The position numbers and the translations under genes were made by a program. Shown in pieces: positions 15,942 through 43,397 of a stretch of DNA of 64,000 nt. Location: assembly GCA_949752745.1 (NCBI GenBank), contig OX457027.1, forward strand, positions 88,991,720-89,055,719, given 5' to 3'. The stretch is from Protula sp. h YS-2021. Its lineage: Eukaryota; Annelida; Polychaeta; Sabellida; Serpulidae. How positions within the stretch are numbered: position 1 is the stretch's first letter; every line of letters begins with the position of its first letter. The notes under the pieces are model-generated. The model had not been told where the DNA came from and did not search any database. It saw only the letters and a program-made list of their open reading frames with translations.

Positions 15942-16013
15942 CAAGGTAAAAAACATGAATGCGCACTTATGTTTAACGATGGTGCTTACCTTATTGTAAA
16001 TTAGAGGAATGAA

Positions 16014-16331: not shown

Positions 16332-16435
16332 AAACGTCTTTGCAGAGAAGGAGACAGCTCATAGTTGATCTGACTGTTGAACGAGATGGAAGACTATTTG
16401 TTGGATTATAAACCATTACACATGGATTCTCATAT

Positions 16436-16726: not shown

Positions 16727-16751
16727 ATTCAAAGAGGAAGGAGTGCAACTC

Positions 16752-17009
16752 ATGCAGGGCACCAAGTCCATTGAGCTGACACATCCCATGTGTGTTATGG
16801 TGATGGACATTGACATAAATGAAGATGGATATGAACTGAAACTGTCTGAACACGAAGATGTTAAAATAATAAAGTTTGGTAATGGACAGTGTTATGTGAG
16901 CTTTCATAGCATTTACAAACGTGAATGTAATGTCTATGATACATATATTAATTTAGATTGGTATGAATGGCATGCATTTATCGATGTATTGAATGTATTT
17001 GTAAAATAA
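16752..17009 (+). CDS. Small unknown protein, third in the row
   Basis: Eighty-five residues from ATG 16,752. Acidic strands ('MVMDIDINEDGYELKL') are followed by 'NLDWYEWHAFIDVLNVF', again a strand plus Trp-led closing helix as in its two upstream neighbours. The open frame continues upstream to 16,611, overlapping the previous gene, so a frameshift-fused longer protein is possible. The stop codon overlaps the poly(A) signal at 17,005-17,010. Confidence 0.55.
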   Translation: MQGTKSIELTHPMCVMVMDIDINEDGYELKLSEHEDVKIIKFGNGQCYVSFHSIYKRECNVYDTYINLDWYEWHAFIDVLNVFVK

Positions 17010-17101
17010 AAGTTTATTGCAAAAAAAATAATAATTGTAAAAATGTAAATAATGTATAACACAATAAACAAAGAATGTCGTATAAAACTGTCTTGTTTAT
17101 T
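17005..17101. terminator. Convergent poly(A) signals
   Basis: AATAAA lies at 17,005-17,010 and 17,063-17,068 on the plus strand. On the minus strand it lies at 17,096-17,101 and 17,013-17,018 (seen as TTTATT). They sit exactly between the last rightward gene (stop 17,007-17,009) and the last leftward gene (stop 17,135), as expected for the end of both transcripts. Confidence 0.7.
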
Positions 17102-17134
17102 TACAATATCCATAATACAATTCACAATTACCAA

Positions 17135-17623
17135 CTACTTCACTAATAAAACATCAATAAAATAATGGCTTATAATGCCTATATAAAAATCCTTTACAAC
17201 AAAATCACCATCACTTCTTCTTAATACATCAATGATTTCAAAAGGACTATGTCCTCGAGCTCTTTGAATTATATAATACACACAATAAAATCTGCATGTA
17301 GATGATATCGGTGTTTGTAATGGAACTGAATTATAAATGAAATTAAACTTTAAAAACTTATTCAAACGACTGTCTATAGGTAAAAGTCCATAAGAGTCCA
17401 AATATTCTGCAGGGTCTTTGTCATAATATACTACCACCCAATGCTCTCCTGTCTCATCATGATCGTCTGTGTTGATGACATAGGCACCACGTTGTAAAGA
17501 TGGTAACTGATCCATAGAAAACACACCTTGAAACAAGTCTTTTGTCGCGGCATCATGGATAGGGTGGCTTCTATCTGCTTCGTATTCATGACTGGTAGTC
17601 GAATTGAATGCTACGATTTGCAT
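17135..17623 (-). CDS. PRO: Adenain-like cysteine protease (Polinton PRO)
   Basis: The 162-residue protein carries the adenovirus-type protease triad: His61 in 'GEHWVVVYYD', Asp76 in 'EYLDSYGLLP', Gln103 for the oxyanion hole and Cys110 in 'SSTCRFYCVYYI'. In the family it cuts capsid and core precursors at (M/L/I)xGG-type sites during maturation; a VGG/E site lies in the pX-like peptide of this element. It is the last gene of the leftward row and overlaps the 3' end of the capsid gene by 38 bases. Oddity: the residue after the nucleophile is Arg where Gly is usual, which may weaken activity. It is the only large minus-strand gene with a clean frame. Confidence 0.9.
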   Translation of the reverse strand: MQIVAFNSTTSHEYEADRSHPIHDAATKDLFQGVFSMDQLPSLQRGAYVINTDDHDETGEHWVVVYYDKDPAEYLDSYGLLPIDSRLNKFLKFNFIYNSVPLQTPISSTCRFYCVYYIIQRARGHSPFEIIDVLRRSDGDFVVKDFYIGIISHYFIDVLLVK

Positions 17624-18965
17624 TTATTTCAATAATGTTATCAAATTCAGCATACACTATAACATTGACTGTATTTTGCAAGGCACCAGCAAAATTCATT
17701 TCTAGTCGCAAATTCCCATGCTTGATAAGGGCATAATGATCATCACCATCATAATCAGGTGTTAAGTCAAACGAAAATAAAGTATAACCTTTAGGCCAAT
17801 CTTCCCGTTTTATAATGGAACTTTTCTCACCATTCAATCTATCAAAAGATTTGTAAAGCGTTTCAAAAGCATCAAGATATTTGCCTCGATTTATGTCAAG
17901 TTTGAGAGGTTTAGATAGGACTGGTTCACCATCTGTGTAAAGTTGCATAAAGTTAAGAAGAAAATGCTCAAAATTGTATGGATTTCTTAATGCTGTTCCA
18001 GCAAAGGCTTCATTATGAACCAGTCCAATGACAATACGTTTCGGTAATTGGCCTAAAAAGATGTTATCTTTCACAAGAGATTGAAATCCAGCTGGAATAG
18101 CTAAAACTTTACACTCTTTTCTAGTAATAATAAACTTAGCAGGACTTTTCATCAATGCATCTGCATGTCCTAACTGAATACCTGGACTAACCCTCACTTT
18201 GCGAATGGTTAAAAACGCATCTCTCACTTCTACTTTATAACCATTATTTGCAGCCATTAATACATATTCATCTTTTTGTCTATGTAAACGTAATTTCATA
18301 CTAATACCATTTGGAAGATAGCGATCTTGCTCAAACAAATCTACTCTTAAACCACCTGTTAGCGTGAACTCACGGCTTAGACGTGTATACAAATACGATT
18401 ATGTAAACCATTATTTCCCTGTAGAGCTACATCACCACCCTCAACATTTACATGAAAACCTGCTACATATCTTTCATGATTAGCTCTCTTCACCTCATGA
18501 CTATTCATTGACCCGGCAGTATCTTTATAGATGAGTATCTTTATAGATAGAGCGCTCAGAATGGAGGCTTTCTTCCGAGTCATGAATGAGATGAGATATG
18601 ATGCTGGTATAACCATGGGTATTGTTACTATGTGATACCAAACGATCATTTAGAGACAATTCAGTATTGGACCATAACCCATTAAACAAATCATTGATAC
18701 ATGGTACATTATCATCTACATCACATGGTGTTCCATCAGCCTTTACAATAGCGCATACAATATGAAGTCTACTGTTCTTTAAATCTAGATATTCTTGTGT
18801 ACTCGCAGGAATGTAGAATTCTATTGGAGCGCCCTCTCTAATGGTAGTTAGTGGTTGATAGTCAACATTAAAACTTTTTTCCACAGCAGTTTGCGTTGGT
18901 GGTATGTGAAACCATTCTAATGGAGAAAGACTACATTCACAAGAATGATTATGAATTAAAGACAT
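17586..18965 (-). pseudogene. MCP: Major capsid protein, double jelly roll, two frameshifts
   Basis: The product would form the hexons of a Polinton virion. The N-terminal half has the family's typical 'LFNGLWSNTELSLNDRLVS' block and the 'DTAGSMN' block. The C-terminal half has 'TLTGGLRVDLF', 'GQLPKRIVIGLVHNEAFAG', 'NPYNFEHF', 'YTLFSFDLTPD' and a closing strand rich in 'VNVIVYAEFDN'. The start is the ATG at 18,965, two bases after the pX-like stop. A 16-bp tandem duplication at about 18,518-18,550 shifts the frame, and a second shift near 18,380-18,395 returns it. Total length (460 codons) agrees with the family. It overlaps the protease start. Confidence 0.9.
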
Positions 18966-18967
18966 GA

Positions 18968-19323
18968 TTAAAAAATATCTTTCTTATGTTTTGTTGATGT
19001 TATCCGTTTAGCTGCTTTTCGCCTTCTGGCAGGTGTGCAGGTTGTGCTCTCTTTTGTGATCCTCACACATCACCAATGACACGTTGTGCTACTCGGCCTG
19101 TAACATCTTTCGCGACATCTTTTGCAGCCTTTTTAAGATGTGGTGAAACGATTTTAGCCCCTGCCTTAAGCAGTGGAATAGCTTTGCGAGCCAATGATCC
19201 CAATATTGAACCAATGCCATCTCCATACTGTATTCGTGCTCCTTTAAATCCTGGTAATTCCCCACCCACTTGACGAAGAAAATGGTTGCGATATGCAGAC
19301 GGATCGTGTACATATGCTTTCAT
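18968..19323 (-). pseudogene. pX/pVI-like core or membrane-active peptide
   Basis: The small precursor has 'FLRQVGGE', a probable protease cleavage site, then 'YGDGIGSILGSLARKAIPLL' followed by a Lys/Ala-rich amphipathic stretch. This is the standard pattern of adenovirus pX/pVI-like peptides in Polintons and adintoviruses. After a frameshift near 19,065 a strongly basic tail follows ('ARRRKAAKR') and ends at TAA 18,968-18,970. Its ATG overlaps the penton stop (ATGA). The family packs DNA or disrupts membranes during entry; here this is inferred. Confidence 0.8.
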
Positions 19324-19972
19324 AATGCTTTTTGTCGAAAATGAAGTTTACATATCACTTTCCCAGTGTGAAATGAAACATTCTGACCTGTGTCATCCTT
19401 AATATTCATTTCTATTGTGTCAAATTTGGATGTGTTTACAGTGACGTAATGAGGTTCTTCATAAGTTTTCATAATAATATCACCATCATACCGTTCAATG
19501 GGAACAGAACGTAGTAAAGGAACATAATAATCTCCAACTATTTGTGGCTCACAAATACTACAGTACACATAAAGTGTATAAAATCCATGTTTCACATCGG
19601 ATTGATGTTCAGCAGGACCGGATTCTTTATACCATTTATCTGGTTTAAATCCTAAAATCTCAGCTAATCCAGTAGAAAAGACAATATCATAATCATCTCT
19701 TAAAATAAGAGAAACTTTTCGACAAAAATAGATTTTTGTAATTCTGCATTTACTGCAGTACATATTTCAGGTATGGATCTGTAGTAACCATATGGAATGG
19801 AAACTGCCGTCCATGTGTGTGGGTATTGAATTTCAGCTAAGGCTTCTTCATATTTTCCTTTCAAATATATTGTACGAGGTAAACGAATTTGATAAGTAGA
19901 AGCCTTATTAGTAGGATAATAGTTCAAACTAGCATTGCTAGGTAAAGTTATATAAAAACTTGTTGACTTCAT
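19320..19972 (-). pseudogene. Penton (minor capsid protein), one frameshift
   Basis: The N-terminus 'FYITLPSNASLNYYPTN' and 'IYLKGKYEEALAEIQYPHTW' is the conserved opening of Polinton/adintovirus penton proteins, a single jelly roll at capsid vertices. The rest ('STGLAEILGFKPD', 'HGFYTLYVYCSICEPQIVGD', 'LLRSVPI') follows in another frame, so one shift lies near 19,715-19,730 next to short A and T runs. Length about 217 codons, as usual. Located between the lipid-anchor-like protein and the pX-like peptide. Confidence 0.85.
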
Positions 19973-20026
19973 GATGACTAAATCGTTTGTGTGATGTAGA
20001 TTAACTAGATGTGTCTATACATTACT

Positions 20027-20227
20027 TCATGTTTGACACTCGTCATCTCCACTGCTGTCTACATTGTCGTCTAAATTGCTATCTACATGATCCACATTGG
20101 TATCTACTACTTCTCCTTGACAACAAGCACTGACACACCTAATTTTTACAGGAATAGTATTTTTATTTCCATTTTCTTTACAACAACAACACCATAACTC
20201 TTTAATCCGTGTTAAAACGTTTCCCAT
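20027..20227 (-). CDS. Small putative lipid-anchored Cys-rich protein
   Basis: From the ATG at 20,227 the protein begins MGNVLTRIKELWCCCC. Gly2 with a small polar context fits N-myristoylation and the four adjacent cysteines fit palmitoylation. A second CC pair (SACC) lies mid-protein and the C-terminal third is acidic (repeated VD.N/VDS phrases). An in-frame ATG at 20,245 would give six extra residues and lose the N-terminal Gly. The frame overlaps the end of the upstream gene by 16 bases. About 66 residues, no known family. By analogy with lipid-anchored virion proteins it may act at membranes, but that is inference. Confidence 0.55.
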   Translation of the reverse strand: MGNVLTRIKELWCCCCKENGNKNTIPVKIRCVSACCQGEVVDTNVDHVDSNLDDNVDSSGDDECQT

Positions 20228-20793
20228 CCTTCCGGAAACAACCATTGTTGACGTTGTTGTATCTCTTTTGTAATATCTTCACGAGTTGTCTTTTTGTCAA
20301 AAACAGTTTTTGGAATATTAGCGTCTACAATTTCCTCAATAAACTGCTTCCAACCATGTGGTGGTTCTCGTCGTTCTTTTCTTCTTGTAGAAACCAATGC
20401 TTCTTTCAACAAATCAATAATGTTGGAATTTGTAATGACAGTACCCGTTTATAAAACAAGTTCATTTTTATCTGTCCATCTTGTACCATATTTCTTCAGT
20501 TATTCCAGAAGTTGTGTTAGTTTTACATGATAAATTGGTTGAAAATGGGTTAGAAACTGTTGGGACTTTTCTGATTTTTCTGCTTTGGATGATGTAACAG
20601 ACTTTTGTTGCGATTGAATTTTTCGTAAATGACGTCCAAGAACTTGAGACATTTCTATTGCCTTTTCACGAATTCGTTTCCCACGTAAAAGTTTATTCAC
20701 TTTCGTTTTGATTTAACCATCTTTTCCCTTCTTTTCTAACAACAATTTATATTTATATTCAGGAATGAGGACCATTTTCATAGTATGTTTCAT
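20212..20793 (-). pseudogene. Conserved Polinton protein of unknown role, three in-frame stops
   Basis: The frame opens at ATG 20,793, which overlaps the upstream stop (ATGA), and reads 'MVLIPEYKYKLL', a basic stretch 'RGKRIREKA', a Ser/Lys-rich middle, 'TGTVITNSNIIDLLKEAL', 'PPHGWKQFIEEIVDANIP' and ends at TAA 20,212. I know this arrangement from other invertebrate Polintons but not its function. Three TAA codons interrupt an otherwise single frame of 194 codons. The position between packaging ATPase and penton suggests a virion or assembly role. Confidence 0.65.
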
Positions 20794-21115
20794 TTTAACA
20801 GCAACTGAGCTAGCAAAGGTAATGCAAATTTAGCAATAGCTCCAATGAATCCTACTTTCTGATTAACCAACTTCTTTTTTCTTTGAAGTGATATCTTCTT
20901 ACTGCCAGTGTGCGTAGGGTATGACGTTCACGCTTGAATTCCTTATACCTTTTTGAGCTTAAGGGTAAATGTCCTCACAATATATTCAAACAAATTTCAA
21001 ACAAGCTAGTTAATTCCTCCTTAGTAGCTTGTTGTAACAAGGATTTACGTCGTTTAGGCCCGCTGCGTGCGAGCAAGTGAAGAAAAGGTTGATTCGCTTG
21101 AATACGTGTAGACAT
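20790..21115 (-). pseudogene. Conserved small Polinton protein, basic N-terminus and hydrophobic C-terminus
   Basis: From ATG 21,115 the product has 'LLARSGPKRRKSLLQ' (NLS-like), 'TKEELTSLFEICLNIL', 'LPLSSKRYKEFKRERH', and after a frameshift 'SLQRKKKLVNQK' and a hydrophobic end 'GFIGAIAKFALPLLAQLLL'. This helical basic protein with a hydrophobic tail recurs in Polintons and adintoviruses; its exact role is unknown to me. One TGA after 'CLNIL' and one frameshift near 20,895 break it. It overlaps the ATPase 3' end by 62 bases and its stop overlaps the next ATG. Confidence 0.65.
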
Positions 21116-21767
21116 CTTGGCTGCGAATGGTCAAGTGACTTGGTTCTTGTTCATACGCTACTTTATCAACATATACGTAATGTGTATCTTTTGGTAAAAT
21201 GCCTGTACGAATACGTAGTTGATCATTCGTCTTCGGCTTCAAATCAATGAATAAATAGCCATGAGGTTTGCTCGTAGCATCTTGATAGGCTTCTATGAGA
21301 AATTTAGATTTTCCAGGATACATTTGTCGCGCTAATGTACTTATTTGTTGACTGTCTCTAGGATTTTTAAACAGAATGATGTAATGTGTATTCAAACTAA
21401 TATTTCGCATTTCTCTACCATGAAGGAACAAATTATGCACAATAAAAATAAAGCTTAGATTTTGATGACTGCTGCCAACACTAAGGAGACGTGTCATACG
21501 CTCATCACTATGACATTTGGTCATTAAGTCATCAATGATGAGTAAGTTTGGTTTTTTCGGGTTAAAACGCTCTTCAATGTCATATGGAATGCCTTGGTGA
21601 AATTCCACACCCTTCATTCCCTTGTATAAAGGCTGATCTGCTGCATAGAGCCATAAAATGGATTTTGGAGAGGGTTTAATTAACTTTTGTTCTAGAATTT
21701 CTCTAACTAGAGACGTTTTACCACTGCCTGTAGGTCCAGAGACCAAACATGTGAATGGATGCTTCAT
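21054..21767 (-). CDS. ATP: FtsK/HerA-type DNA-packaging ATPase
   Basis: The 237-residue ATPase has Walker A 'GPTGSGKT' at residues 11-18 and Walker B 'LLIIDDL' at 75-81, followed by 'SFIFIVHNLF' and 'IILFKNPRD', the usual blocks of A32-like packaging ATPases in Polintons, adintoviruses and virophages. It would pump the genome into capsids. The frame is intact. Its ATG overlaps the integrase stop (ATGA at 21,764-21,767), and its 3' end overlaps the next gene. Confidence 0.93.
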   Translation of the reverse strand: MKHPFTCLVSGPTGSGKTSLVREILEQKLIKPSPKSILWLYAADQPLYKGMKGVEFHQGIPYDIEERFNPKKPNLLIIDDLMTKCHSDERMTRLLSVGSSHQNLSFIFIVHNLFLHGREMRNISLNTHYIILFKNPRDSQQISTLARQMYPGKSKFLIEAYQDATSKPHGYLFIDLKPKTNDQLRIRTGILPKDTHYVYVDKVAYEQEPSHLTIRSQDVYTYSSESTFSSLARTQRA

Positions 21768-22835
21768 TTTCGAATATCAGTTTCTTTCACCCAACTGCTA
21801 AACTTCTTTGGCCAACCTAACCACTTCACAAATAATTCTTTAACACCTCGTCTTCTTCGTGTTTTCAACACCTTTTCAATTCTGTAGACAGATGCAATAT
21901 CTTTTTTTACTTTCTGCAGTTTCATCCAAAAAGCCTTTCACACGATACAAGTGTATTCCTTGCTTCTTACAACGATGTGTGATAATAAGGACTTCTTACG
22001 TCCACTTTATATGGTAATCCCGTTGAAATACATATTTCGTGTGGGAAATGCGAACCTGATCACCAATTTTAAATTTGTAGGATTTTTTCTTCTTTGATTT
22101 CAATTTCAATTTGTCTACATACATATACTTCCACACTTTTGATTCGATGTCCTTACGAATATCTGCAGGAGCATACCTATTAGGGAGGGAGCCATGAGGT
22201 CTATGGTTGTAATTATACACTAAGTCTGGAAGGATGTCCATATAGCGATAAGTTTGATTATGTAGGAAATATCGATACATCATTCCCTTTAGAGTACGAA
22301 TGACTCTCTCAGCAAAGTTGACTTTGGTTTCATTCTTTGTTGTATAGGCATGTATTCCCTCCTTCTTCAAAAATGCTTTTACCCATCTGTTTTTAAATTC
22401 AGTTCCTTTATCTGACCTTAGAGTTCGTGGTCTTCGTTGTGTTTCATGAAAAATCTTTTGAAAGGCTTCTATGACACTGGTATGTGATTTATTAGGTATT
22501 GGCTGCACCCATAAATATTTGGAAAACACATCAATGACAACCAATAAAAAGCGGGTGTCATCATTATAGGGAGCTATGTTTCCCATGTCAGCTAAATCAA
22601 TATCCCACATGTCATCAATTCCACGTGCAATGACACGTTGCCTTTTAAACCTGTATTTTACAGGTTGTAGTAAACTGAAGGCATCTTGATCCTGTAACCA
22701 TTTCTTCACTTGTGAATGAGTGACTGGTTGATCATGTTTTTTTAATATGTGATAAACTTTATAAGGACCAGCAAATGCCCCGGGTTGACCAGGTTTAAAG
22801 TAAATATTGGTTAAGTAGTCTTTCCACGTCGACAT
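21764..22835 (-). pseudogene. INT: DDE integrase with C-terminal chromodomain, one stop and one frameshift
   Basis: The enzyme would integrate element ends and make the 6-bp duplication. The catalytic core shows Asp80 in 'WDIDLADM', Asp142 in 'RSDKGTEF' and Glu176 in 'FAERVIRTLK' (33 residues between the last two by my count), then 'YNYNHRPHGSL'. After 'HIKWT' an in-frame TAA (21,996) interrupts; the same frame continues with 'THRCKKQGIHLYRVKGFLD', and after a shift at an A7 run near 21,903-21,909 a chromodomain follows ('YRIEKVL', 'ELFVKWLGWPKKFSSW'). Chromodomains bind methylated histone H3 and may steer insertion. The stop overlaps the ATPase start. Confidence 0.92.
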
Positions 22836-22871
22836 GTTAACACTAAATGATTAACACTTGTCAGCATATCT

Positions 22872-22910
22872 TTTTATTTTGTCTTACAACTCATTCAACA
22901 TGTTTTTATA
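22872..22910 (-). promoter_or_regulatory. TATA-like box upstream of integrase; AATAAA nearby
   Basis: On the minus strand TATAAAAA lies at 22,903-22,910, about 70 bases before the integrase ATG at 22,835. AATAAA at about 22,872-22,877 (minus) could end the transcript of the two genes upstream. Together they suggest that the leftward genes are split into at least two transcription units. Confidence 0.45.
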
Positions 22911-22968
22911 ACTCAATCAACATATCTTACAAATCAAGTATTGATACAATGGAGTGAATAATTGGAGT

Positions 22969-23259
22969 TCATTGATCTTCAATGAACATTAACCAACTAC
23001 TTAATTCATCTAATGTGATAGCATCTACACCATATTTTTCACAACGTTGATTTGCATTATCTAACACTTTATCTAAATGAATATAATATTTAGCTTCATT
23101 CCAGTATGTATAGGCACCCGCAGAATGACAAGTATGTTCTGAACACTCTTCATTTTAACAAGCAGGACATACTAAACATGCAAACTTTTTTACAGCTAAT
23201 AACATTTCTTCACAATAAGTTTTTTGCACAATATATTGTCTCAATGTAATGTCTGCCAT
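22969..23259 (-). pseudogene. Small Cys-rich protein of unknown role, one in-frame stop
   Basis: The frame of 96 codons begins at ATG 23,259, overlapping the previous stop (TAATG), and ends at TGA 22,969. It contains 'CLVCPAC', then an in-frame TAA, then 'NEECSEHTCH', so six cysteines and two histidines would make a zinc module. The C-terminal part ('LDELSSWLMFIEDQ') is helical. I do not recognise the family. Confidence 0.55.
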
Positions 23260-24225
23260 TATACTGCAATATAGATTAACCACCCTCTCACTTCATCAAA
23301 CAGTCTTGGATCAAATCGAGCAAAGTGATATGCTGCTTCCACATCAAACTCCTCAGCTCCGTCAATGTTTGACTCTTCGATGAAATCCTCGCATAATTTT
23401 CAGCGTGGAATGAGCCAGCTCCCAATAGATGTCAAAGTGTTCCAGTAGTTGTTGAATAGATCCAAAACGCACCAGTTCACTTATCATGTAGTCCACATAC
23501 CCTTGAAAAAGGTTTCTACATCCATCTTTCACATATCCATATGACACGTCTGCACACTTTGACGGCTGGCAAGCAAATGACTTGTAGTCTTACTCGACAG
23601 ATACTGTTAGTGAGCCGCACTTGTTGCAGAAGTTGTCAGGTTCACACAACTTGCAATTGTACTTATGGCAGTGACAATCATAATCCTCAGCATATCCGTA
23701 AGCACCGCAATATTCATAGTTAAGTCCAAGTTGATTTTGCACGTTCATATTCTCCAATCGAACTTTAGCCAGTCTGTCCTTGGATAACTTTGACACTTTC
23801 CTTCGCTTATCCTTTTGCAGCTTGATAGGAGTTTTCTTCCCATGACATTCCGTACATGGTTCAGGTTTGGCGAATAAGACTGAGTTGATGTTCTCCATTT
23901 CCTGAAGCAATGTCTCCCATTCACCATCATTCATGTTGATGTAACGCGTATATTCTTTCCCTTCAGACAGTGATGTTTGTACAAAACTCACATAGCGCAT
24001 ATCCAAGTATGAAATGACTTCAAGCCACTTCGTTTGCGTTAAGTACAGTTTGAAGCCAATGTTGCGTAAATTTTTCAATCTCTCACACACAATCCGCCAC
24101 AAGGATGGTGATAAAGCAAGCCATCTCTCTCCACGTTTGATTCGAAGAAATGGTCCAAATTGACCATGCTCTACAGTAATGGTTAAGTTTGCACTAATTT
24201 TAAAGCTGCTTGTCTTGTTCTCCAT
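23259..24225 (-). pseudogene. Unknown protein with PC4-like halves and a Cys-rich zinc region
   Basis: From ATG 24,225: two strand-strand-helix units ('FLRIKRGERWLALSPSLW', and later 'YTRYINMNDGEWETLLQ') that resemble the small rightward proteins of the same element; then 'CTECHGKK', a basic stretch, and a dense Cys/His block ('YEYCGAYGYAEDYDCHCH', 'CKLCEPDNFCNKC'). A TAA at 23,590 interrupts; the same frame continues ('ACQPSKCADVSYGYV', 'YVDYMISELVRFGS') and after a shift near 23,390 ends in an acidic part 'DGAEEFDVEAAYHF' and TAA 23,259-23,261. Probably DNA-binding, from composition only. Confidence 0.6.
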
Positions 24226-24261
24226 GACTGCACAATGTACTAATGCCTTTGAGTCCACTCC

Positions 24262-24274
24262 CTTTTATACCCAG
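24262..24274 (-). promoter_or_regulatory. TATA box GGTATAAAAGGG before the 24,225 gene
   Basis: The minus strand reads GGGTATAAAAGGGAG about 40 bases before the ATG at 24,225. It overlaps the last codons of the upstream open frame (stop at 24,265). It has the same GGTATA(A/T)AA shape as the boxes at 11,659 and 24,720. Confidence 0.6.
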
Positions 24275-24693
24275 CTATACCCAGCAAACATCTTGCAAAG
24301 TTTTGAATTAACTTCAACTCGTCCATGGTTGAATCGAACAAGTTCTGATACATTCGTCGTCAATGGAATGTCATCATCATAATGTAAAATGATTCTTGGA
24401 GCCACAACTAACATGAGCTTAACTGCCCAAATTGTATTCGCGTTGATAAATGCTAACTCAATGTCGTAAGTTAATGGTAAATGCAGTTCTTCACATTCAC
24501 GTAGAAATGAGTGGATGAAACGATCTCTTGGAATGGTCTTTCCAACCGCTCCCCAATGCTGATGCAAATTCTTCACTTGCAACATCCAATCCGATTCAAA
24601 AGCAGGAAGCTTTGAAAACACCCAGTCAGCATAATTCACTTTGAAGACGTCATCCATGGTTTCTACACATCGATGAAGAAGCAATGTTGACAT
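24265..24693 (-). CDS. Unknown protein, first gene of the leftward row
   Basis: The open frame encodes up to 142 residues from ATG 24,693, or 130 from a second Met at the 'METMDD'-like phrase (residue 13). The sequence is globular with several Trp and hydrophobic blocks ('DWVFSKLPAFESDWMLQ', 'AVKLMLVVAPRIILHY'). No motif or family is recognised. A TATA box at 24,720-24,731 lies about 30 bases upstream. It is the gene nearest the right end, the mirror position of the polymerase gene's zinc-finger start. Confidence 0.6.
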   Translation of the reverse strand: MSTLLLHRCVETMDDVFKVNYADWVFSKLPAFESDWMLQVKNLHQHWGAVGKTIPRDRFIHSFLRECEELHLPLTYDIELAFINANTIWAVKLMLVVAPRIILHYDDDIPLTTNVSELVRFNHGRVEVNSKLCKMFAGYSWV

Positions 24694-24719
24694 TGTGAAT
24701 GATTTTTCTCGTCAGACAT
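24663..24719 (-). other. Mini-frame MSDEKN...CQHC, mirror of the polymerase N-terminus
   Basis: Directly below the TATA box, ATG 24,719 opens an 18-residue frame, MSDEKNHSQCQHCFFIDV, then TAG. At the left end the matching position reads ISDKF...CHDC into the polymerase fingers. It therefore looks like the inverted copy of the start codon region plus the first Cys pair. It overlaps the ATG at 24,693 in another frame, so it may act as an upstream open frame. Confidence 0.45.
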
Positions 24720-24731
24720 GTATTTATACCA
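24720..24731 (-). promoter_or_regulatory. TATA box GGTATAAATACATG (leftward promoter)
   Basis: Minus-strand TATAAATA about 30 bases upstream of the first leftward ATG, inside the inner inverted repeat. Mirror of the rightward box at 12,021-12,030 (GCATATAAATC). Confidence 0.65.
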
Positions 24732-24860
24732 CTTTGATGTAATCAAAATATGATGTGTAACTTGTTCAAACTTATTAAAATTGCTGACTCAGCAGAATTT
24801 AAACTAAACTGAATCAAACAGTGAAATTTTCATACAAATTGGTTAAGTATAACGAAAGTT
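24725..24860 (-). repeat. Right inner (subterminal) inverted repeat
   Basis: Inverse complement of segments in 11,755-12,010: shared words (given in minus-strand sense) include 'ctgctgagtcagcaatttt', 'tttgattaca' and 'gaaaatttcactgtttgatt'. Confidence 0.8.
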
Positions 24861-25170
24861 AGGTCACTTTTAAGTTAAAATGGCGGCATGTGACAAAAAA
24901 TGCATACAGCCGTCGGTGCAATTAGCCCATGACTATGTTAAAACTAGATATAAAACTGAATCAAACAGCGAAATTTTCATACAAATCGGTCAACTATAAC
25001 GAAAGTCATCGCAATTTTAATTTAAAATGGCGGCTTGTCGCAAAAATGCATACAGCCGTCGGTGCAAGTAGTCTATGACTAAGTTTAAACTTTACATAAA
25101 ACTGAATCAAACAGTGAAAGTTCAATACAAATCGGTCAACTATAACGAAAGTTATCGCAATTTGAAGTAA
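24806..25170. repeat. About 145-bp tandem repeat, nearly three copies
   Basis: Units begin at about 24,806, 24,951 and 25,096 with 'aaactgaatcaaacag', followed by 'catacaaat.ggt.aa.tata' and 'aaaatggcgg.'. The third is cut short. The left end has a single copy of the first part. It is followed by a 'ccaaaaaaccaaaaatg' unit at 25,191 and 25,293 and a (CT)n tract at 25,361-25,393. Confidence 0.85.
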
Positions 25171-25357
25171 AGGGGGGAGGAGGGGGATAGGTAGACCCAA
25201 AAAACCAAAAATGTTCAGAATTGTCTGAAACGGATAAATATGCAAAAATCACAAATTCGACCCCGGGGGGGGAAGGGGGGGAGGAGGTCGACCCAAAAAA
25301 CCAAAAATGTTCAGAATTGTCTGAAAGGTGGGGGAGGTCGACTTACTCTATTCCTGC

Positions 25358-25395
<38 letters not shown>

Positions 25396-25471
25396 GGTTT
25401 GCCTCTTACTTTAATTCTTTCTCACGCTGTGAGCTCTTTCATCTCTTGATTTTTGCCACCTGTTTTAGTGT

Positions 25472-25679
25472 AATTGTTTCTCACGCTGTGAACATTGTCA
25501 TTTCTTGATTTTTACCACTTGTCCTGTGGCACACCGATTTTTCATGTGATCAAATTGTTGTGTGTAACTTATGCCGACTTGATAGAATGTTGCTCGCCTA
25601 GGGGAGGGGGGAGGGAGGGAGGGAGGGGAGGGGAAAAATGACGTCACTTCCTGTGGCAGAACCGGCGTTTTCCCCTACT
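25472..25679 (-). repeat. Right terminal inverted repeat of the large Polinton
   Basis: Inverse complement of 11,195-11,399, ending ...CCCCTACT. Inside it a 70-bp unit ('ctcacgctgtga', 'tcttgatttttgccac') is repeated once (25,420-25,520). Confidence 0.95.
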
Positions 25680-29125: not shown

Positions 29126-29129
29126 TGCG

Positions 29130-37256: not shown

Positions 37257-37262
37257 CATCGA
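37257..37262. repeat. Left 6-bp target-site duplication of the mini-Polinton
   Basis: CATCGA, identical to 43,392-43,397. Confidence 0.9.
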
Positions 37263-37460
37263 AGTGGTGGGAAAGTGGGGGTTCTGAGTCACCTGTGACT
37301 TCATAATGACGTCAGACACACCAGGAGGCATACCCCTAACCCTACCAAGAGTTCTAAGCCTATCCATCATCGTGACGTCATCAATCACGTGACCTGTCAA
37401 TCATCTGTCATGTGACCCTAACCCTATATGAGGAATGTTTTGCAGAGCATTGTCCTTCCG

Positions 37461-37546
37461 TCCTGATTAACTCAGTCGGTAAAGCATAGGACTCGTGGTC
37501 GGACCCATGGTCGGAAGATTGGTGGTTCGAGCCAACCCATGGGCGG
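37461..37546 (+). other. tRNA-like unit A, left arm only
   Basis: A box 'TAACTCAGTCGGTAAAGC' and B box GGTTCGAGCC (37,524-37,533) are correctly spaced. The anticodon arm reads 'GGACTCGTG', then about 12 extra bases, then 'GGTC'. The extra bases sit where eukaryotic tRNA introns sit. The right arm lacks about 325 bp that include this unit. Confidence 0.5.
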
Positions 37547-37865
37547 CATATAGGACTTCTGAGTCACCCTGTGACGTCATTAAGTCACGTGAACCCCTCC
37601 CCCCTAGGTGACGTCCCTTCTACCATCTGCCATACCATCACTCAGTCACTCATTCTTGAGACCCCCTCCTCGCTAGCACGTGATTCATCAGCCTTTCCCT
37701 TTATAAGCACATTGTGTGTGCACAAGTGCCATTGTTGCTGTTTCTGTTGTTGGAGGCACATGGAGAAGGAGGAAAGGGCTAAAAGATTCGTGGTAAGTAA
37801 CATTCTTTTTCTGCGCTATAAAAAAAAGACCTATAGCCTTATGTTTTCCACATCATTCACCAGAA

Positions 37866-37948
37866 CTGCTATGTAGTTCACCCGGTAGAACGGAGGACTC
37901 ATGGCTAAACCCATAGTCAGAAGGTGGTTCGAGCCCTCCTATGGACCA
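37866..37948 (+). other. tRNA-like unit B, left arm
   Basis: A box 'TAGTTCACCCGGTAGAAC', anticodon arm 'GGACTCATG' with an insert ending 'CATAGTC', B box GGTTCGAGCC (37,926-37,935). The CAT in the anticodon position and the 'AGAAGG' after the arm resemble elongator tRNA-Met. Its partner in the right arm is the unit at 42,984-43,078. Confidence 0.5.
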
Positions 37949-39024
37949 ACATAACTTTTTCTTTTTTATGTGACTGGGGTGAAGAGCACACGCCATTGAC
38001 AAGAACGTATTTGAATGGCACATTCGCACAAGAACGTTAAACAAGCCTCTCGCATTCACAAGATGTGTTCGAATGGGAGGACCAACTCACCTCTATTCAA
38101 AGACGTGATCAGCTCACATACCATGTGACTATGTGACGTCATGTGACTATATGACATCATATGACTATGTGACACTATGTGACATCATGTGACTATGTGA
38201 CACCATGTGACTGTGAAATCATGTGACTATGTAACGTCATGTGACTATGTGAGGACTATGTAAGGACTATGGTAGCAGAATTAGTCTAACTATGTATGTA
38301 GTATGTAATAATCAGAGCGTAATATGTAATATGTGACTATTTTCACTGGTAATGTTTAATTGATCATATTTCAGTGGTCCTATTACAGTAATCATATTAT
38401 TAGCCTCACACACATACATACACACACATACACACACGCAGAGACTAGGAATAAGTACACGAAAGAGCTCAGAGCATGGGAACGATCAATACATTTGAGA
38501 GTGAAAGACCTCAGAGCGTGGGAACAATCAATAAATTTGAGAATGAACAAGATTTTCCCCACACTAAGTCTGATGTTATGTGTTATGCTATAGTAGTGGG
38601 AAAACGGGGCCTCTAAAGCACATTTAACAAATTTAGTTTTTAAAAACATACGATGTATAAAATAGGTTTTAGCATTTTACCATGTTACTTATTCGAATAT
38701 TCTGAAGTCATAGTAGTGGGAAAATGAGGGTTCTAAAGCACATTTAACAAAATTAGTTTTTGACAACATGTTACGTCTAAAATAGGTTTTAGCATTTTAC
38801 CATGCTACTTATCCGAATAATCAGGTTATAGTGGGAAATGTGGGTTCTAAAGTAACTTTAACAAATTTAGTTTTTGAAAACATATTATGCCATGGTACGG
38901 GGAAAAGATTGAGATTTTTGCATATTTACACGTTTCAGACGATTCTACCACTTGGTTGCTGGTTGGTTGGTTGTTGGAAAATGGGAAGTGAAAATGTGGT
39001 TAGTTATGTAGGAAGACCGCGCCC

Positions 39025-39110
39025 ATTCAAACATGTGTTCGAATGGCAAGCCTATTCAAAGATGTGTTCGAATGGCAAGCCCATTCAGAAGACGTGTTCG
39101 AATTATTTCA
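39025..39110. repeat. Short tandem 'tgttcgaatggcaagcc', three copies
   Basis: Units of about 27 bp in the left arm; the inverted copies lie at 41,700-41,815. Confidence 0.85.
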
Positions 39111-39131
39111 GAACATATTACGTCATGGTAT

Positions 39132-39325
39132 TGTTCAACAATTTTTTTAACAAGTTCAACAATTGTTCAACAAATTGTTTAACATGTTCAACATGTTGAA
39201 CATGTTGTTCAACAAATTCAACATGTACAACATATTCAACATGCTGTTCAACATGTTCAACAAGTTGTTGGACAAGTTGAACATGTTCAACATGTTCAAC
39301 AAGTTGTTATTCAACAAGTTGTTGT
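39132..39325. repeat. Palindromic TTGAACA / TGTTCAA array, left arm
   Basis: About 20 copies of the 8-10 base words 'ttcaacaag' and 'ttgaacatg' in both orientations over 190 bp, giving repeated palindromes such as CAACATGTTG and ACAAGTTGT. The open frames rich in Asn, Met and Leu through it on both strands are repeat artefacts. Mirrored at 41,493-41,674. Confidence 0.9.
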
Positions 39326-39336
39326 ATATAAAGCTA
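39326..39336 (+). promoter_or_regulatory. TATA box TGTATATAAAGC of the zinc-finger gene
   Basis: Lies about 55 bases upstream of the ATG at 39,387, right after the palindrome array. The right arm has the same box on the other strand (about 41,481-41,492), pointing away toward the core. Confidence 0.6.
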
Positions 39337-39386
39337 TGTTTAAAGACTTTTTCAGACTTTTGAAAAGTGTATGTTGAACAGAAAGG

Positions 39387-40136
39387 ATGTATAAATGCAA
39401 CATTTGTTCGAAATCTTACAATGGGCCACAAAATCTTAAAAGGCACTTAAAGGATGCTCACACTTCAGAAGTGGATGAAGAATCGGATATCACTGAAACT
39501 GTAGATGAGTCTTCTATGGAAAGTCAAAGCGTCAACATGACTGAAAAGAATGCACATGCTTTTACAAAATGTGGTGCATTATACAACAGCGAAGAAGTTT
39601 GTTCAAACATGTAGAGCAGTGTGGTGAGGATGTCGATGAAAGGAGCTCTGAAAGTGAGTCAGAAACAGACTCTGAAAGTGAGTCAGAAATAAACTGTTTG
39701 GCATGATATGGTTCAAGAAGTCTACGATGACTATGATGACAAATTTCAAGAAAAGCTTTCAGAATATGAAGAACAAGGACTTGAAGATGCGCGTGAAATA
39801 GCTAGTGATGAACTTCGACCCATTTATAAGCATGGACTAAAACAACTGTTTATTAGACTATTCGAATATACCCAACGTCTAAAACAAAGCCAACATTATC
39901 AAGATTTTAGAGGACTTTGTTGATGAAAAACATTATGAGTATTCATAGGCACTAAAGGCGGCTATCAGGAAAAACAATGCATTCTTTGAAGAGCTACTAG
40001 ATGAGATAATGATACGGATGACAGCAGTGATGAAGATAGTGGCATGGACAGTGAACAGAGTGAAACAGATGAAAAATGGACTTATTTGACTAAACTTTTT
40101 AATAAAGACTTCATAAATGTTGTAAGATTTTATTAA
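39387..40136 (+). pseudogene. Zinc-finger and acidic protein of the mini-Polinton, several breaks
   Basis: From ATG 39,387 the product has a C2H2 finger 'CNICSKSYNGPQNLKRHLKDAH', a Ser/Glu-rich stretch, a second finger ('CGALYNS'; His and Cys follow after a frameshift as 'FKHVEQC'), an acidic 'SESESETDSESESE' tract, a helical domain beginning 'MVQEVYDDYDDKFQEKL', with 'EEQGLEDAREIASDELRPIY', and after further breaks an acidic end and 'DFINVVRFY' before TAA 40,134-40,136. Lesions: a shift near 39,590, a TGA near 39,705, a shift near 39,900, a TAG near 39,956, a shift near 40,010. The first 15 codons lie inside the inverted repeat. Probably a regulator or DNA-binding protein, by composition. 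Confidence 0.7.
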
Positions 40137-40500
40137 CTTAAGCGTTGTGTATGAATATATGTCTTGCTTTGCAACATATGAAGTCGCAAGAGGCTAAGAT
40201 CCCTGGCGCGGTGTGAATTCACCCGTAAACCATATATCATATATTATAATTAAGTATTGTATTATGTATTATATTCAAGTATTGTATTATTATGAATTAT
40301 ATCCAAGTATTGTATGAGAAAAATAAAAAGTTTACAAATATGCGCAATTATGACAAAAACAAAAATATTTCAAATTCATATTATGTTAATACATGTGCCC
40401 ACTCACAAGAACTTAATAAGTCTGTAAATGTTATAAAAACTGACTTCACATTAACATAGATAATGTTAATTTATTTCATAATCTACGTATGAAGCATAAA
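40137..40500. other. Core spacer, AT-rich, convergent ends
   Basis: AATAAA at about 40,101 and 40,323 (plus) and TTTATT at about 40,470 (minus AATAAA) suggest the two convergent core genes end here. Contains a 'tattatgtattatattcaag' repeat. No coding signal. Confidence 0.5.
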
Positions 40501-40504
40501 GACA

Positions 40505-41247
40505 ATTTTAGTTGAACTACATATCAAATTGTCTATTAGGGTCAAAGCTAAGTTTCAAGTTCTTGTCAAGCTTCAAGAACTTCGCCCCAATCTTCTGCAC
40601 TGAGGGTGATGAAATCATAGCATCCACTAAGCTCGTCATACTGTTAAAACTGCATACAGTCGTCTCGGTCAATGACTTTCTACTCAACCATCTTCTGACA
40701 GTCACTGCATTTATACACATTCATTTTCTGAAGCATGAGATTCACTGACGTCATTTGCTTCTTCAGCATTTGCCAATCTTTCACTGACAACAAAATTCCC
40801 TTCTTGGTATGATATAACCTCCAAGGTGTATGATCCGTAATATATTCACGTATGTTAACCATCACTTTCTGTTGATATTTTGCCAGTTTAATATATATTT
40901 CTTCATAAGTGGGTATCACAACCGGTAAATTGTCTACACTCATCTTCTTCATGGACTTTGTAGTGGCAGCTTTACGCTCCGGTTCTCGCTTCATTTTAGG
41001 CTCTGTCTTAATTTTTCGCTTTTTACACGGCGACGTTGTAGGTGGTAACATCTCTTTTCATCTTTCTAAGATGTGGTCGCTTTTGACGCTGCTGACGTGA
41101 CTTCACCTTAGACTTTACATGGGCATCCTTAAACTTTGCTGTAAGTATTGTCTCAGGTTTTACTATAAAATTTTCGGCAGGCATTGTCTCAGACTTTTCT
41201 ACAGGCATTGCCATAGATGGTAGTTGTTGTTCACTCACTGCAGACAT
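40505..41247 (-). pseudogene. PC4-like protein of the mini-Polinton, with a second 'QYDEL' domain
   Basis: From ATG 41,247: a Met/Lys-rich tail with basic 'SRQQRQKRPHLRKMKRD', a frameshift near 41,045, a basic NLS-like stretch 'CKKRKIKTEPKMKREPERK', then a PC4 domain ('IYIKLAKYQQKVMVNIREYI', 'TKKGILLSVKDWQML'), a CSDC knuckle-like pair, and after TAG 40,680 the same frame continues to 'QYDELSGCYDFITLSAEDWG'. That last part matches the separate small gene at 16,436-16,726 of the large element. The two proteins that are separate there are therefore joined, or were adjacent, here. Two or three stops break it. Expected to bind ssDNA. Confidence 0.7.
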
Positions 41248-41299
41248 GTTCACTCTTCAGTATCTTGATACAGAATGTGTGTTGCGTCTGAGGGCGGAT

Positions 41300-41312
41300 G
41301 CCTTTTATGCTC
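41300..41312 (-). promoter_or_regulatory. TATA-like box CATAAAAGGC of the PC4-like gene
   Basis: Minus strand 'GAGCATAAAAGGCATCC', about 55 bases before ATG 41,247. Similar to 'GCATAAAAGG' at 12,000 of the large element. Confidence 0.5.
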
Positions 41313-41492
41313 TATAGGGAGTTGTCACACTCGAGGTTGAACACACTATATCCCAATGTGTTTAGAAATAACTTTACCACGTGTGACTTTGTGGCCCATT
41401 GTAAGATTTCGAACAAATGTTGCATTTATACATCTTTTCGGTTCAACATACACTTTTCAAATGATGAAAAAGTCTTTAAACATAGCTTTATA

Positions 41493-41674
41493 TACAACTT
41501 GTTGAATAACAACTTGTTGAACATGTTCAACTTGTTGAAAATGTTGAACATGTTGAACAGGTTGAGCATGTTGAACATGTTCAGCATGTTGAACAACATG
41601 TTGAACAACATGTTCAACATGTTGAACAATTTGTTGAACAATTGTTGAACTTGTTAAAAAATTGTTGAACAATA
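41493..41674. repeat. Palindromic TTGAACA / TGTTCAA array, right arm
   Basis: Mirror of 39,132-39,325, with the same word type but a slightly different order and number of words. Confidence 0.9.
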
Positions 41675-42389
41675 CCATGACGTAATATGTTCTAAAAAAT
41701 AATTCGAACACGTCTTCTGAATGGGCTTGCCATTCGAACACATGTCTGAATGGGCTTGCCATTCGAACACATCTTTGAATAGGCTTGCCATTCGAACACA
41801 TGTTTGAATGGGCGCGGTCTTCCTACATAACTAACCACATTTTCACTTCCCATTTTCCAACAACCCACCAACCAGCCACCAAGTGGTAGAATCGTCTGAA
41901 ACGTGTAAATATGCAAAAATCTCAAATTTTTCCCCGTACCATGGCATATGTTTTCAAAAACTAACTTTGTTAAAGTTGCTTTAGACCCCACATTTTCCAA
42001 CTACTATAACCTCAGAGTATTCGGATAAGTAGCATGGTAAAATGCTAAAACCTATTTTAGACGTAATATGTTTTCAAAAACTAAATTTGTTAAATGTGCT
42101 TTAGAACCCTCATTTTCCCACTACTATAACTTCAGAATATTTGAATAAGTAACATGGTAAAATGCTAAAACCTATTTTATACATCACATGTTTTCAAAAA
42201 ACTAAGTTTGTTAAATGTGTTTAGAGCCCCCGTTTTACCACTACTATAACGTAACACATAACATCAGACTTAGTGTGGGGAAAATCTCATTCCTTCTCAA
42301 ATTTATTGATTGTTCCCACGCTCTGAGGTCTTTCACTCTCAAATGTATTGATCGTTCCCATGCTCTGAGGTCTTTCATGCACTGTGTGT

Positions 42390-42420
<31 letters not shown>

Positions 42421-42537
42421 AGGCTAATAATATGATTACTGTAATAGGACCACTGAAATATGATCAATTAAACATTAAAAAGTGAAAACAGTCACAAATA
42501 TGGTCACTAAAATACGTTTAAAGAAAAAAGTTATGTT

Positions 42538-42622
42538 GGCCAATAGGTGGGCTCGAACCACCTTCTGACTATGGGTTTGAGCCGTGAGTCCTCCGTTCTA
42601 CCGGGTGAGGTACATAGCAGCT
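42538..42622 (-). other. tRNA-like unit C, right arm only
   Basis: Minus strand A box 'TACCTCACCCGGTAGAAC', anticodon arm 'GGACTCACGG', an insert ending 'CCATAGTC', B box GGTTCGAGCC (42,550-42,559). CAC is in the anticodon position. The left arm runs straight from 'ataatcagag' to the next shared text without it. Confidence 0.5.
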
Positions 42623-42983
42623 CTGGTGAACGATCTGATAATTACATATTACATACATAGTTAGACTAATTGTCCTCACATAGTCCTTACATAGTCCTCA
42701 CAGGCACATAACGTTACATAGTCACATGGTGTCACAGTCACAGATTGTCAAATAGTCACATTGTGTCACAGTCACATGACGTCACATGGTATTTGGGCTC
42801 ATCACGTCTTTGAATGGAGGTGAGCTGGTCCTCCCATTCGAGCACATCTTGTGAATGGGAGAAGCTTGTTTAACGTTCTTGTGCAAATGGCGTGTGCCAT
42901 TCAAATACGTTCTTGTCAAAGGCGTATGCTCTTCACCCCTGCCCCCCCCCAAAAAAAAAAATAATAATAATAATAAAAGTTAT

Positions 42984-43078
42984 GTTGGTCCATAAGCGGG
43001 CTCGAACCACCTTTGACTACGGGTTTTAGCCACGAGTCCTCCGTTCTGCCGGGTGAGCTACATAGCAGTTCTGGTGAA
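42984..43078 (-). other. tRNA-like unit D, right arm (partner of unit B)
   Basis: Minus strand A box 'TAGCTCACCCGGCAGAAC', anticodon arm 'GGACTCGTGG', an insert ending 'CCGTAGTC', B box GGTTCGAGCC. CGT is in the anticodon position, where partner unit B has CAT. Confidence 0.5.
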
Positions 43079-43391
43079 TGATGTGGGAAACATAAGGTTA
43101 TAGCGCAAAAAAAAAAAAAAAAAACAAAAACAAAAAAAAATCAAATAAAAAAAAAAAGAATGTTACTTACCACGAATCTAATCAGGACGGAAGGATAATG
43201 CTCTGCAAAACATTCCTCATATAGGGCTAGGGTCACATGACCGATGATTGACAGGTCACGTGACTGATGACGTCCCGATGATTGATAGGTGACTTAGAAC
43301 TCTTGTTAGGGTTATGCCTCCTAGGGGGGGGGGGGGGTCTGACATCATTATGACGTCACAGGTGACTCAGAACCCCCACTTTCCCCCTACT

Positions 43392-43397
43392 CATCGA
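43392..43397. repeat. Right 6-bp target-site duplication of the mini-Polinton
   Basis: CATCGA, identical to 37,257-37,262. Confidence 0.9.

What the first reader, a model, noticed from the sequence alone, without database searches (positions are those of the whole stretch)
37257..43397. A 6.1-kb 'mini-Polinton': two 2-kb inverted arms around two regulatory-type genes
The sequence shows AGT(A/G)G(G/T)GGGAAAGTGG ends, a perfect 6-bp duplication CATCGA, inverted arms of 2,170 and 2,004 bp, and a core encoding only a zinc-finger/acidic protein and a PC4-like protein. Terminal sequence, duplication length and shared genes tie it to the 14.5-kb Polinton in the same window. Known Polintons carry polymerase, integrase and virion genes and have shorter terminal repeats. 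An element reduced to long hairpin-like arms plus possible transcription/replication regulators looks like a satellite of Polintons. I do not know a described family with this layout.
Basis: partly seen in the sequence, partly recalled or inferred. Interest (0 to 1): 0.9.

Follow-up and report, generated by a model that had tools for sequence, protein, structure and literature searches.

The report
Abundant Polinton satellite with own genes
The 6.1-kb element is one old, damaged copy of a large family of small mobile elements that carry the ends of giant virus-like Polinton transposons but only two small genes of their own, so they probably spread by borrowing the Polintons' enzymes.

Summary
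In detail: 37263-43391 has AGT-type ends, a 6-bp duplication (CATCGA), arms of 2,170 and 2,004 bp, and a core with a C2H2 zinc-finger gene and a PC4-like gene. Both genes are broken in this copy.

It is not unique. Ten copies with both genes between inverted arms were read in the host genome, the window's included; none has a match to the neighbouring Polinton's polymerase, integrase or other proteins (PC4 apart) between the arms. Of 21 copies tested, 6 show exact 6-bp duplications, 4 show one mismatch, 11 none. One copy sits inside another's PC4 gene; one sits in a Polinton end. Each gene matched in all 150 scored candidates, many with open frames.

The window copy's arms resemble the ends of another Polinton subfamily in the genome; a different mini has ends like the neighbour's. 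The neighbour's integrase matched in all 139 scored candidates, not near the mini genes.

Best reading: a non-autonomous Polinton satellite family moved in trans. The right arm is a copied left end. The zinc-finger gene shows purifying selection in unbroken copies; PC4 does not clearly. Mobilisation in trans is inferred. My paper searches found no description of such elements.

The parts
37257..37262 (.). left target-site duplication CATCGA
43392..43397 (.). right target-site duplication CATCGA
37263..39432 (+). left inverted arm (2,170 bp); contains the subterminal repeats, the zinc-finger promoter region and the first ~16 codons of the zinc-finger gene
41388..43391 (-). right inverted arm (2,004 bp); holds a truncated copy of the zinc-finger gene start (15 residues, MYKCNICSKSYNGPQ)
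38589..38887 (+). about 2.6 copies of a 120-bp tandem unit; units carry a terminus-like motif (AGTAGTGGGAAAATGAGGGTTCT)
41946..42250 (-). about 2.5 matching 120-bp tandem units in the right arm
38913..38946 (+). 34-bp subterminal motif shared with the 14.5-kb Polinton (25217-25250, 3 mismatches)
41888..41921 (-). same 34-bp motif in the right arm
39130..39323 (+). array of TGTT(C/G)AACA palindromes just upstream of the TATA box of the zinc-finger gene; frequent in most minis read, 0-1 per stretch in full Polintons
41508..41672 (-). matching palindrome array in the right arm
39325..39386 (+). TATA-like box (39325) and leader before the zinc-finger ATG
39387..40134 (+). zinc-finger/acidic gene, broken (ORF pieces 39387-39614, 39708-39923); an unbroken 244-aa relative stands at L039:2328-3062
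40517..41253 (-). PC4-like gene, broken (ORF pieces 41023-41253, 40680-41051, 40517-40720); an unbroken 197-aa relative stands at L039:3794-4387
11195..25679 (+). neighbouring 14.5-kb Polinton (TSD AGGACA, TIR ~210 bp); its integrase belongs to a high-copy family with many open frames; candidate helper type

Best explanation
The element is an old copy of a non-autonomous Polinton family, a Polinton satellite. It keeps the cis parts of a Polinton: AGT-type ends, subterminal repeats and long inverted arms. It lacks polymerase, integrase and the other Polinton genes tested and carries two genes of its own. Shown: unit insertion with 6-bp duplications in part of the copies, a shared architecture in ten copies, arms shared with full Polintons of the same genome, and many open integrase frames in the genome. 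Inferred: a Polinton integrase inserts the element and a Polinton protein-primed polymerase copies it, using the shared ends. Inferred from anatomy: the founder arose when the left end of a linear replicating molecule, with the promoter and first codons of the zinc-finger gene, was copied onto the other end, giving 2-kb arms; pairing of the arms during replication then kept the two arms of one copy similar. Inferred: the zinc-finger protein acts on the element itself, perhaps on the palindrome array before its own promoter, to control expression or replication.
For: Arm query in the host genome: 113 matches, with only 40 of 2,328 first-look candidates scored; by my grouping 31 clusters besides the window's own and a duplicate of one. 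In 22 of those 31 that I read, nine two-gene copies, and with the window ten, have no match between the arms to the ten neighbour-Polinton queries other than its PC4. TSDs among 21 copies tested: exact 6 (window, L010, L013, L024, L033, inner C5), one mismatch 4 (L014, L022, outer C5, L038), none 11; shifted control 0-0.03 exact hits per shift and locus for the 16 loci. Nested insertion: 7,769-bp mini, TSD GTAGTG, ends 16/16 identical, inside the PC4 gene of another mini. A mini inside a Polinton terminal region. Full Polintons with homologous arms at C4:10847667-10866666 and C3:43726162-43742300. Left/right arm divergence within copies is below that between copies by median.101 vs .163.070 vs .139.038 vs .121 (11, 11 and 5 within-copy comparisons). 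Zinc-finger gene start also in the PC4-side arm in 9 of 10 two-gene copies. Scored zinc-finger and PC4 lists: 29 convergent neighbours within 5 kb; 0.26 neighbours of any kind expected by chance. No excess near scored integrase hits. Unbroken zinc-finger ORFs: 19 of 21 pairs have dN/dS .20-.39; a homologue elsewhere at 36% over 99% of the length.
Against: No transposition, replication or packaging was observed. The genome search for the polymerase did not complete, so the helper evidence rests on integrase and on two read full copies, whose own frames look broken into pieces. 11 of 21 copies gave no TSD, and the full C4 Polinton gave none either. Coding and intergenic core DNA are equally conserved between old copies. 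Codon models did not separate from a ratio of one for two of four pieces (2 x lnL difference about 2.6 and 0.2), and the printed output did not let me verify that the fixed-ratio runs held the ratio at one. PC4 dN/dS is .43-2.46. Arms of one copy are not always closer: L009 (.186) and L022 (.259) in one segment and L024 (.144) in another exceed the between-copy medians. L021 has a zinc-finger fragment near a distant integrase; the minis at L017 and L028 lie beside Polinton genes, outside the arms. Mini PC4 is only about 36-48% identical to that of full Polintons over 27-89 aa and the zinc-finger pieces have no match in the three full copies read, so the minis are not simple recent deletions of those.
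Confidence: 0.82

Rival explanations
1. Simple internal deletion: each mini is an independent defective copy of a full Polinton.
For: Arms are shared with full Polintons; PC4 is present in both.
Against: Ten copies share one core and one gene order, nine of them also the zinc-finger start in the PC4-side arm. The zinc-finger pieces have no match in the three full Polintons read, and PC4 differs by more than half of its residues.
Confidence: 0.1
2. True virus satellite: the minis are also packaged in Polinton (polintovirus) particles and travel between cells or hosts, like virophage or transpoviron satellites.
For: Ends and arms shared with elements that carry an ATPase, a protease-like ORF and ORFs that I label capsid by position and recall; own selected gene; homologues of the zinc-finger protein in other, unnamed sources; a transpoviron of similar size also carries a zinc-finger gene (PMC8877843 passages).
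Against: No particle, episome or packaging signal was tested; ordinary trans-mobilisation inside the nucleus explains all data.
Confidence: 0.25
3. Self-mobile element: the two proteins, with host enzymes, suffice for movement.
For: Only these two genes are seen and many copies have open frames.
Against: The Pfam domains found (C2H2, PC4) are not recombinases or polymerases; the ends and 6-bp duplications match Polinton integration.
Confidence: 0.04
4. Assembly artefact or chance inverted repeat.
For: Long inverted repeats can be misassembled (general knowledge).
Against: Many independent loci with TSDs and divergent arms; nested copies.
Confidence: 0.01

Closest known systems
Polintons/Mavericks
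   Same: AGT-type ends, 6-bp target duplication, inverted terminal repeats (intact vertebrate Mavericks: 12.7-24.6 kb, TIRs 46-1,447 bp; PMC8097293, passages seen); arms homologous to full copies in this genome
   Different: 3.9-7.8 kb in the un-nested copies with found ends; no match to polymerase, integrase, ATPase or protease; arms up to 2 kb; own zinc-finger gene
MITEs and other non-autonomous DNA transposons
   Same: depend on enzymes of a relative that shares their ends (general knowledge)
   Different: far longer, with very long arms and two protein genes, one with a signal of purifying selection
Transpovirons of mimiviruses
   Same: linear element of ~6-7 kb with terminal inverted repeats, few genes including a zinc-finger one, suggested dependence on a larger virus (PMC8877843, passages seen)
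   Different: different helper, host and genes (helicase and transposase annotated there); integrated in a eukaryotic nuclear genome here; no sequence relation tested
Foldback/Galileo elements
   Same: very long, internally repetitive inverted arms (abstract of PMC3573991 seen in the listing)
   Different: Polinton-type ends and 6-bp duplications here; no P-type transposase seen
Adenovirus incomplete-particle genomes with duplicated left end (recalled, no call)
   Same: one end of a protein-primed linear genome copied to the other end, giving long inverted repeats
   Different: those are transient defective genomes; this is a high-copy chromosomal family

Membership tests
Polinton/Maverick | 6-bp target-site duplication | tested here: met
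   window CATCGA exact; of 21 copies tested, 6 exact, 4 with one mismatch, 11 none
Polinton/Maverick | AG(T)-type ends with inverted repeats | tested here: met
Polinton/Maverick | protein-primed PolB and retroviral-type integrase encoded | tested here: not met
   no match between the arms in ten two-gene copies; the queries are the neighbour's own (Pfam rve E=1.4e-11; DNA_pol_B_2 E=5.5e-8 on 13418-14281)
Polinton/Maverick | ATPase, protease and capsid genes encoded | tested here: not met
   same calls; matches present in the full copies at C3 and C4. Capsid labels of the queries are by position and recall, without a Pfam or NCBIfam match
Non-autonomous derivative of Polintons | cis ends shared with a full copy in the same genome | tested here: met
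   arms homologous to C4:10847667-10866666 and C3:43726162-43742300; L038 arms match the window Polinton end (90% over 363 bp)
Non-autonomous derivative of Polintons | moved in trans by Polinton enzymes | not testable with these tools
   inferred only
Virus satellite (transpoviron/virophage-like) | packaged in helper particles or replicated in its factory | not testable with these tools
   no particle data
Virus satellite (transpoviron/virophage-like) | own genes maintained by selection | tested here: inconclusive
   zinc-finger yes in unbroken ORFs; PC4 unclear; coding equals intergenic conservation in old copies
MITE | short (<~1 kb), no coding capacity (recalled) | tested here: not met
   6.1 kb, two genes; open frames in other copies

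The most novel reading that the evidence does not exclude
A high-copy satellite of polintoviruses with its own selected DNA-binding gene, which has taken on the ends of at least two Polinton subfamilies in one genome and may travel in Polinton particles: a satellite-helper system of double jelly-roll DNA viruses preserved, and perhaps still active, in a eukaryotic nuclear genome.
Probability: 0.3. Interest if true: 0.92.

Novelty: new variant of a known kind. Interest (0 to 1): 0.76.

Why it matters
Mavericks/Polintons encode capsid-type proteins, yet their particles have not been observed (abstract of PMC8097293, seen in the listing). A satellite that shares their ends and keeps a selected gene of its own would suggest that Polinton proteins act in trans, and would give a natural reporter for when and where they are active. 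The many open, high-scoring copies of both the satellite genes and the Polinton integrase in one genome make this testable in a living host.

Tried and rejected
Rfam and ARAGORN on the window: no gathering-level or tRNA match; low-threshold Rfam hits are mostly miRNA models on the palindrome arrays, set aside. IMG/VR scans for the PC4 protein, the terminal motif, the polymerase ORF and a two-row PC4 alignment: nothing confirmed. Protein searches with PC4: nothing at E 0.001. The idea that the mini zinc-finger protein is the ORF before the neighbour's polymerase: no similarity. The idea that the palindrome array is enriched in p53-type half-sites: 1 and 2 sites only. Internal palindromes CCTAGG and GACGTC that scored as target duplications were discarded. 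One coding-selection test gave mixed results and was followed by one with unbroken ORFs only. Labels: polymerase is borne out for 13418-14281 but the next ORF, 14303-15541, used as polymerase query, has no match of its own and is named by position and recall; so are the capsid ORFs. Paper searches for such elements: (Polinton with PC4: 0 papers); only listings with abstract starts seen, except passages of PMC5753468, PMC6431247, PMC4028283, PMC2871265, PMC8097293, PMC4642659, PMC8877843. Kapitonov and Jurka 2006 is not held, so its statements on non-autonomous Polintons, and Repbase entries, could not be checked.
Full report
WHAT IS THERE. The element runs from 37263 to 43391, flanked by CATCGA on both sides. 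Its ends read AGTGGTGGGAAAGTGG and AGTAGGGGGAAAGTGG inward. The arms (37263-39432, 41388-43391) align over 1,827 sites at 91% identity, with large gaps; one of about 310 bp (by eye) is sequence present only on the left. On four tandem-free stretches K2P is .040-.076, against .071 for the 210-bp repeats of the Polinton at 11195-25679 in the same window, so the two insertions are of similar, considerable age if both pairs of arms started identical. Each arm holds about 2.5 copies of a 120-bp unit with a terminus-like motif, a 34-bp motif also found in the neighbouring Polinton, and, next to the core, an array of TGTT(C/G)AACA palindromes followed by a TATA-like box.

THE CORE. Two genes face each other. 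The left one starts at 39387 with a C2H2 finger and continues as an acidic protein; the right one, on the minus strand, has a PC4 domain. Both are spread over more than one frame in this copy, so this copy is not expected to make either protein. Of the 15 query proteins, only the zinc-finger and PC4 ones match the element. The boundary of the arms falls inside the zinc-finger gene: the right arm ends with the promoter region and the first ~16 codons of that gene, and then the PC4 side begins. The gene runs on only at the left, so the right arm is most simply a copy of the left end.

THE FAMILY. The host genome, unnamed here, has 863 Mb in 218 contigs. A 1-kb arm query gave 113 matches, with 40 of 2,328 first-look candidates scored; I group them in 31 clusters besides the window's own and a duplicate of one. 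I read 22 of the 31 (20, two). Nine copies there, and with the window ten, hold both genes between inverted arms: window, L009, L010, L012, L014, L015, L026, L033, an inner copy in L034 and one in L036/L028. None has a match to the neighbour's polymerase, integrase, ATPase, protease or capsid-labelled ORFs between the arms. Others keep one gene (L013, L024, L017, outer L034/L035) or little more than arms (for example L011, L022, L027). Nine of the ten two-gene copies show the zinc-finger gene start again in the PC4-side arm; L026 shows only a weak trace (10 residues, E 0.25). L021 has a zinc-finger fragment and, about 1.1 kb on, a distant integrase match (26-32%), with no right arm in the 10 kb read; I cannot place it. 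At L017 and L028 a mini lies beside Polinton genes, which are outside its arms.

INSERTION AS A UNIT. Of 21 copies tested, six have an exact 6-bp duplication with AG...CT ends (window, L010 ACAAAC, L013 AGTAAA, L024 GCCATT, L033 CACTTT, inner C5 copy GTAGTG), four have one mismatch (L014, L022, outer C5, L038), and 11 gave none (L009, L011, L012, L015, L016, L017, L018, L020, L021, L026, L027). For the 16 loci the shifted control gave 0-0.03 exact hits per shift. The inner C5 copy, 7,769 bp, lies inside the PC4 gene of another mini, and L038 lies inside a Polinton terminal region.

THE HELPERS. Two full-length Polintons in the genome carry arms homologous to the window mini's arms. C4:10847667-10866666 has inverted arms of about 1.75 kb and matches to integrase, ATPase, capsid-labelled ORFs, protease, PC4 and polymerase; I found no TSD for it. 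C3:43726162-43742300 has the long arm at its polymerase end and a TSD with one mismatch. Neither has a match to the mini zinc-finger pieces, nor has the window's Polinton. Mini PC4 is 44% identical to the window Polinton's PC4-like ORF over 57 aa (36% over 89 aa of the wider DNA match), and 48% over 27 aa and 45% over 53 aa to those of the C4 and C3 copies. By contrast the mini L038 has outer arms like the end of the window's own 14.5-kb Polinton (90% over 363 bp), includes most of the zinc-finger gene in both arms and has one central 175-aa PC4 frame. So minis with the same core genes carry the ends of at least two Polinton subfamilies. Labels: integrase, ATPase and part of the polymerase have Pfam matches; the protease match is weak (E=0.075); the capsid labels and the second polymerase ORF are by position and recall.

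ABUNDANCE. A 71-aa piece of the zinc-finger protein matched in 150 of 150 scored candidates (3,650 first-look), 83-91% identical apart from the window itself; by hand count 144 have no stop in the matched stretch, and many have open frames of 246-254 aa. The PC4 piece matched in 150 of 150 scored (6,085 first-look), 77-89% identical apart from the window; by hand count about 70 have a 191-aa frame without a stop, many with identical scores. In the two lists, 35 pairs lie within 5 kb (0.26 expected), 29 of them convergent, 28 at 0.93-1.19 kb; 13 of 15 close zinc-finger pairs are inverted. The neighbour's integrase matched in 139 of 139 scored (8,588 first-look), 137 without a stop, many with identical scores. 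Zinc-finger hits near integrase hits: 0 within 5 kb, 1 within 10 kb, 2 within 20 kb (0.97 expected; one is the window's own pair of separate elements); PC4: 0, 0 and 1. These lists hold only the best-scored matches, so they are lower bounds and not a census.

SELECTION. Results are mixed and I give all. Across old copies, core coding and intergenic DNA are equally conserved (medians 90.5-93.5% and 92.8%, window against up to ten copies), and trees are star-like, with 7-10% of their length in internal branches. Codon models on pieces give 2 x lnL differences of about 10.8 (zinc-finger middle), 8.0 (PC4 N-part), 2.6 (PC4 domain) and 0.2 (finger part) against a fixed ratio of one; the printed output did not show the ratio, so the constraint is unverified. 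Unbroken ORFs alone give dN/dS .20-.70 for seven zinc-finger ORFs (21 non-independent pairs, 19 of them .20-.39; L039 against the inner C5 copy: 18 nonsynonymous and 17 synonymous differences, dN .031, dS .144) and .43-2.46 for five PC4 ORFs (10 pairs). The 244-aa zinc-finger protein has two relatives of 237 and 216 aa at 36% and 34% identity in unnamed ENA contigs, the only two of 288 candidates at E 0.001. I conclude that the zinc-finger gene was probably kept by selection while the family spread; for PC4 this is open. The PC4 domain matches solved PC4 structures (E about 1e-6).

HOW IT PROBABLY WORKS. The ends, the duplication length and the shared arms point to Polinton integrase for insertion, and by general knowledge of Polintons to protein-primed copying from AGT-repeat ends (jumping-back is discussed in PMC8097293, passage seen). 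Arms of one copy are by median closer to each other than to other copies, though not in every copy (L009 and L022 in one segment, L024 in another), as expected if the ends pair or template each other during copying. The palindrome array is a feature of most minis read (20 matches in the window mini; L027 has none; 0 in three stretches of the C4 Polinton; 0 and 1 in two stretches of the C3 one; 1 in the window Polinton) and sits right before the zinc-finger promoter, so self-regulation is a natural guess. None of these steps has been observed.

NOVELTY. Non-autonomous relatives are known for most DNA transposons (general knowledge), and Polintons are known, so this is a new variant of a known kind. 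I found no paper describing a small Polinton relative with long arms and its own conserved genes in the listings of the open library; subscription papers and Repbase were not searchable. Confidence in the best explanation was lowered from .83 to .82 on rechecking, because of L021 and the unverified codon-model constraint.

Noticed in passing
window ~37463-37540, ~37872-37952, ~42530-42610, ~42975-43054: Four tRNA-like stretches with B-box GGTTCGAGCC and A-box-like sequence by eye, some followed by T-runs, inside the arms; ARAGORN and Rfam do not call them. Possible Pol III units or old SINE pieces.
   Followed up: partly
window 37701-37798 and 11663-11713: Mini left arm and the neighbouring Polinton both have a TATA-like box followed within about 100 bp by GGTAAGT, like a short leader exon with a 5' splice site.
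   Followed up: partly
window 15687-15941: PC4-like ORF right after the polymerase region of the 14.5-kb Polinton (Pfam PC4 E=5.6e-9); no paper in the open library holds both words Polinton and PC4.
   Followed up: partly
G000:C4:10865164-10865574 (L030): In the full C4 Polinton the 120-bp repeat block of the right arm is inverted relative to the rest of the arm.
   Followed up: no
G000:C7:17754273-17757530: Palindromic order of hits: zinc-finger, PC4, PC4, zinc-finger, suggesting a mini whose arms include both genes.
   Followed up: no
L021:6880-8613: Zinc-finger fragment followed by a distant integrase match (26-32% identity); may be another transposon inserted in an old mini.
   Followed up: no
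G000:C7:66550903-66556213 (L038): Mini inserted inside a Polinton terminal region and carrying most of the zinc-finger gene in both arms.
   Followed up: partly
host genome: Integrase of the neighbour's Polinton type: 139 of 139 scored matches, 137 without a stop, many identical scores: a very high-copy Polinton family that looks recently spread.
   Followed up: partly
window 31065-35566 (-): ORFs that look like a LINE (reverse transcriptase, RNase H and a CCHC-type ORF by eye; not scanned).
   Followed up: no
window 29126-30880 and 55521-57680: Arrays of diverged tandem repeats, some shared between the two places.
   Followed up: no
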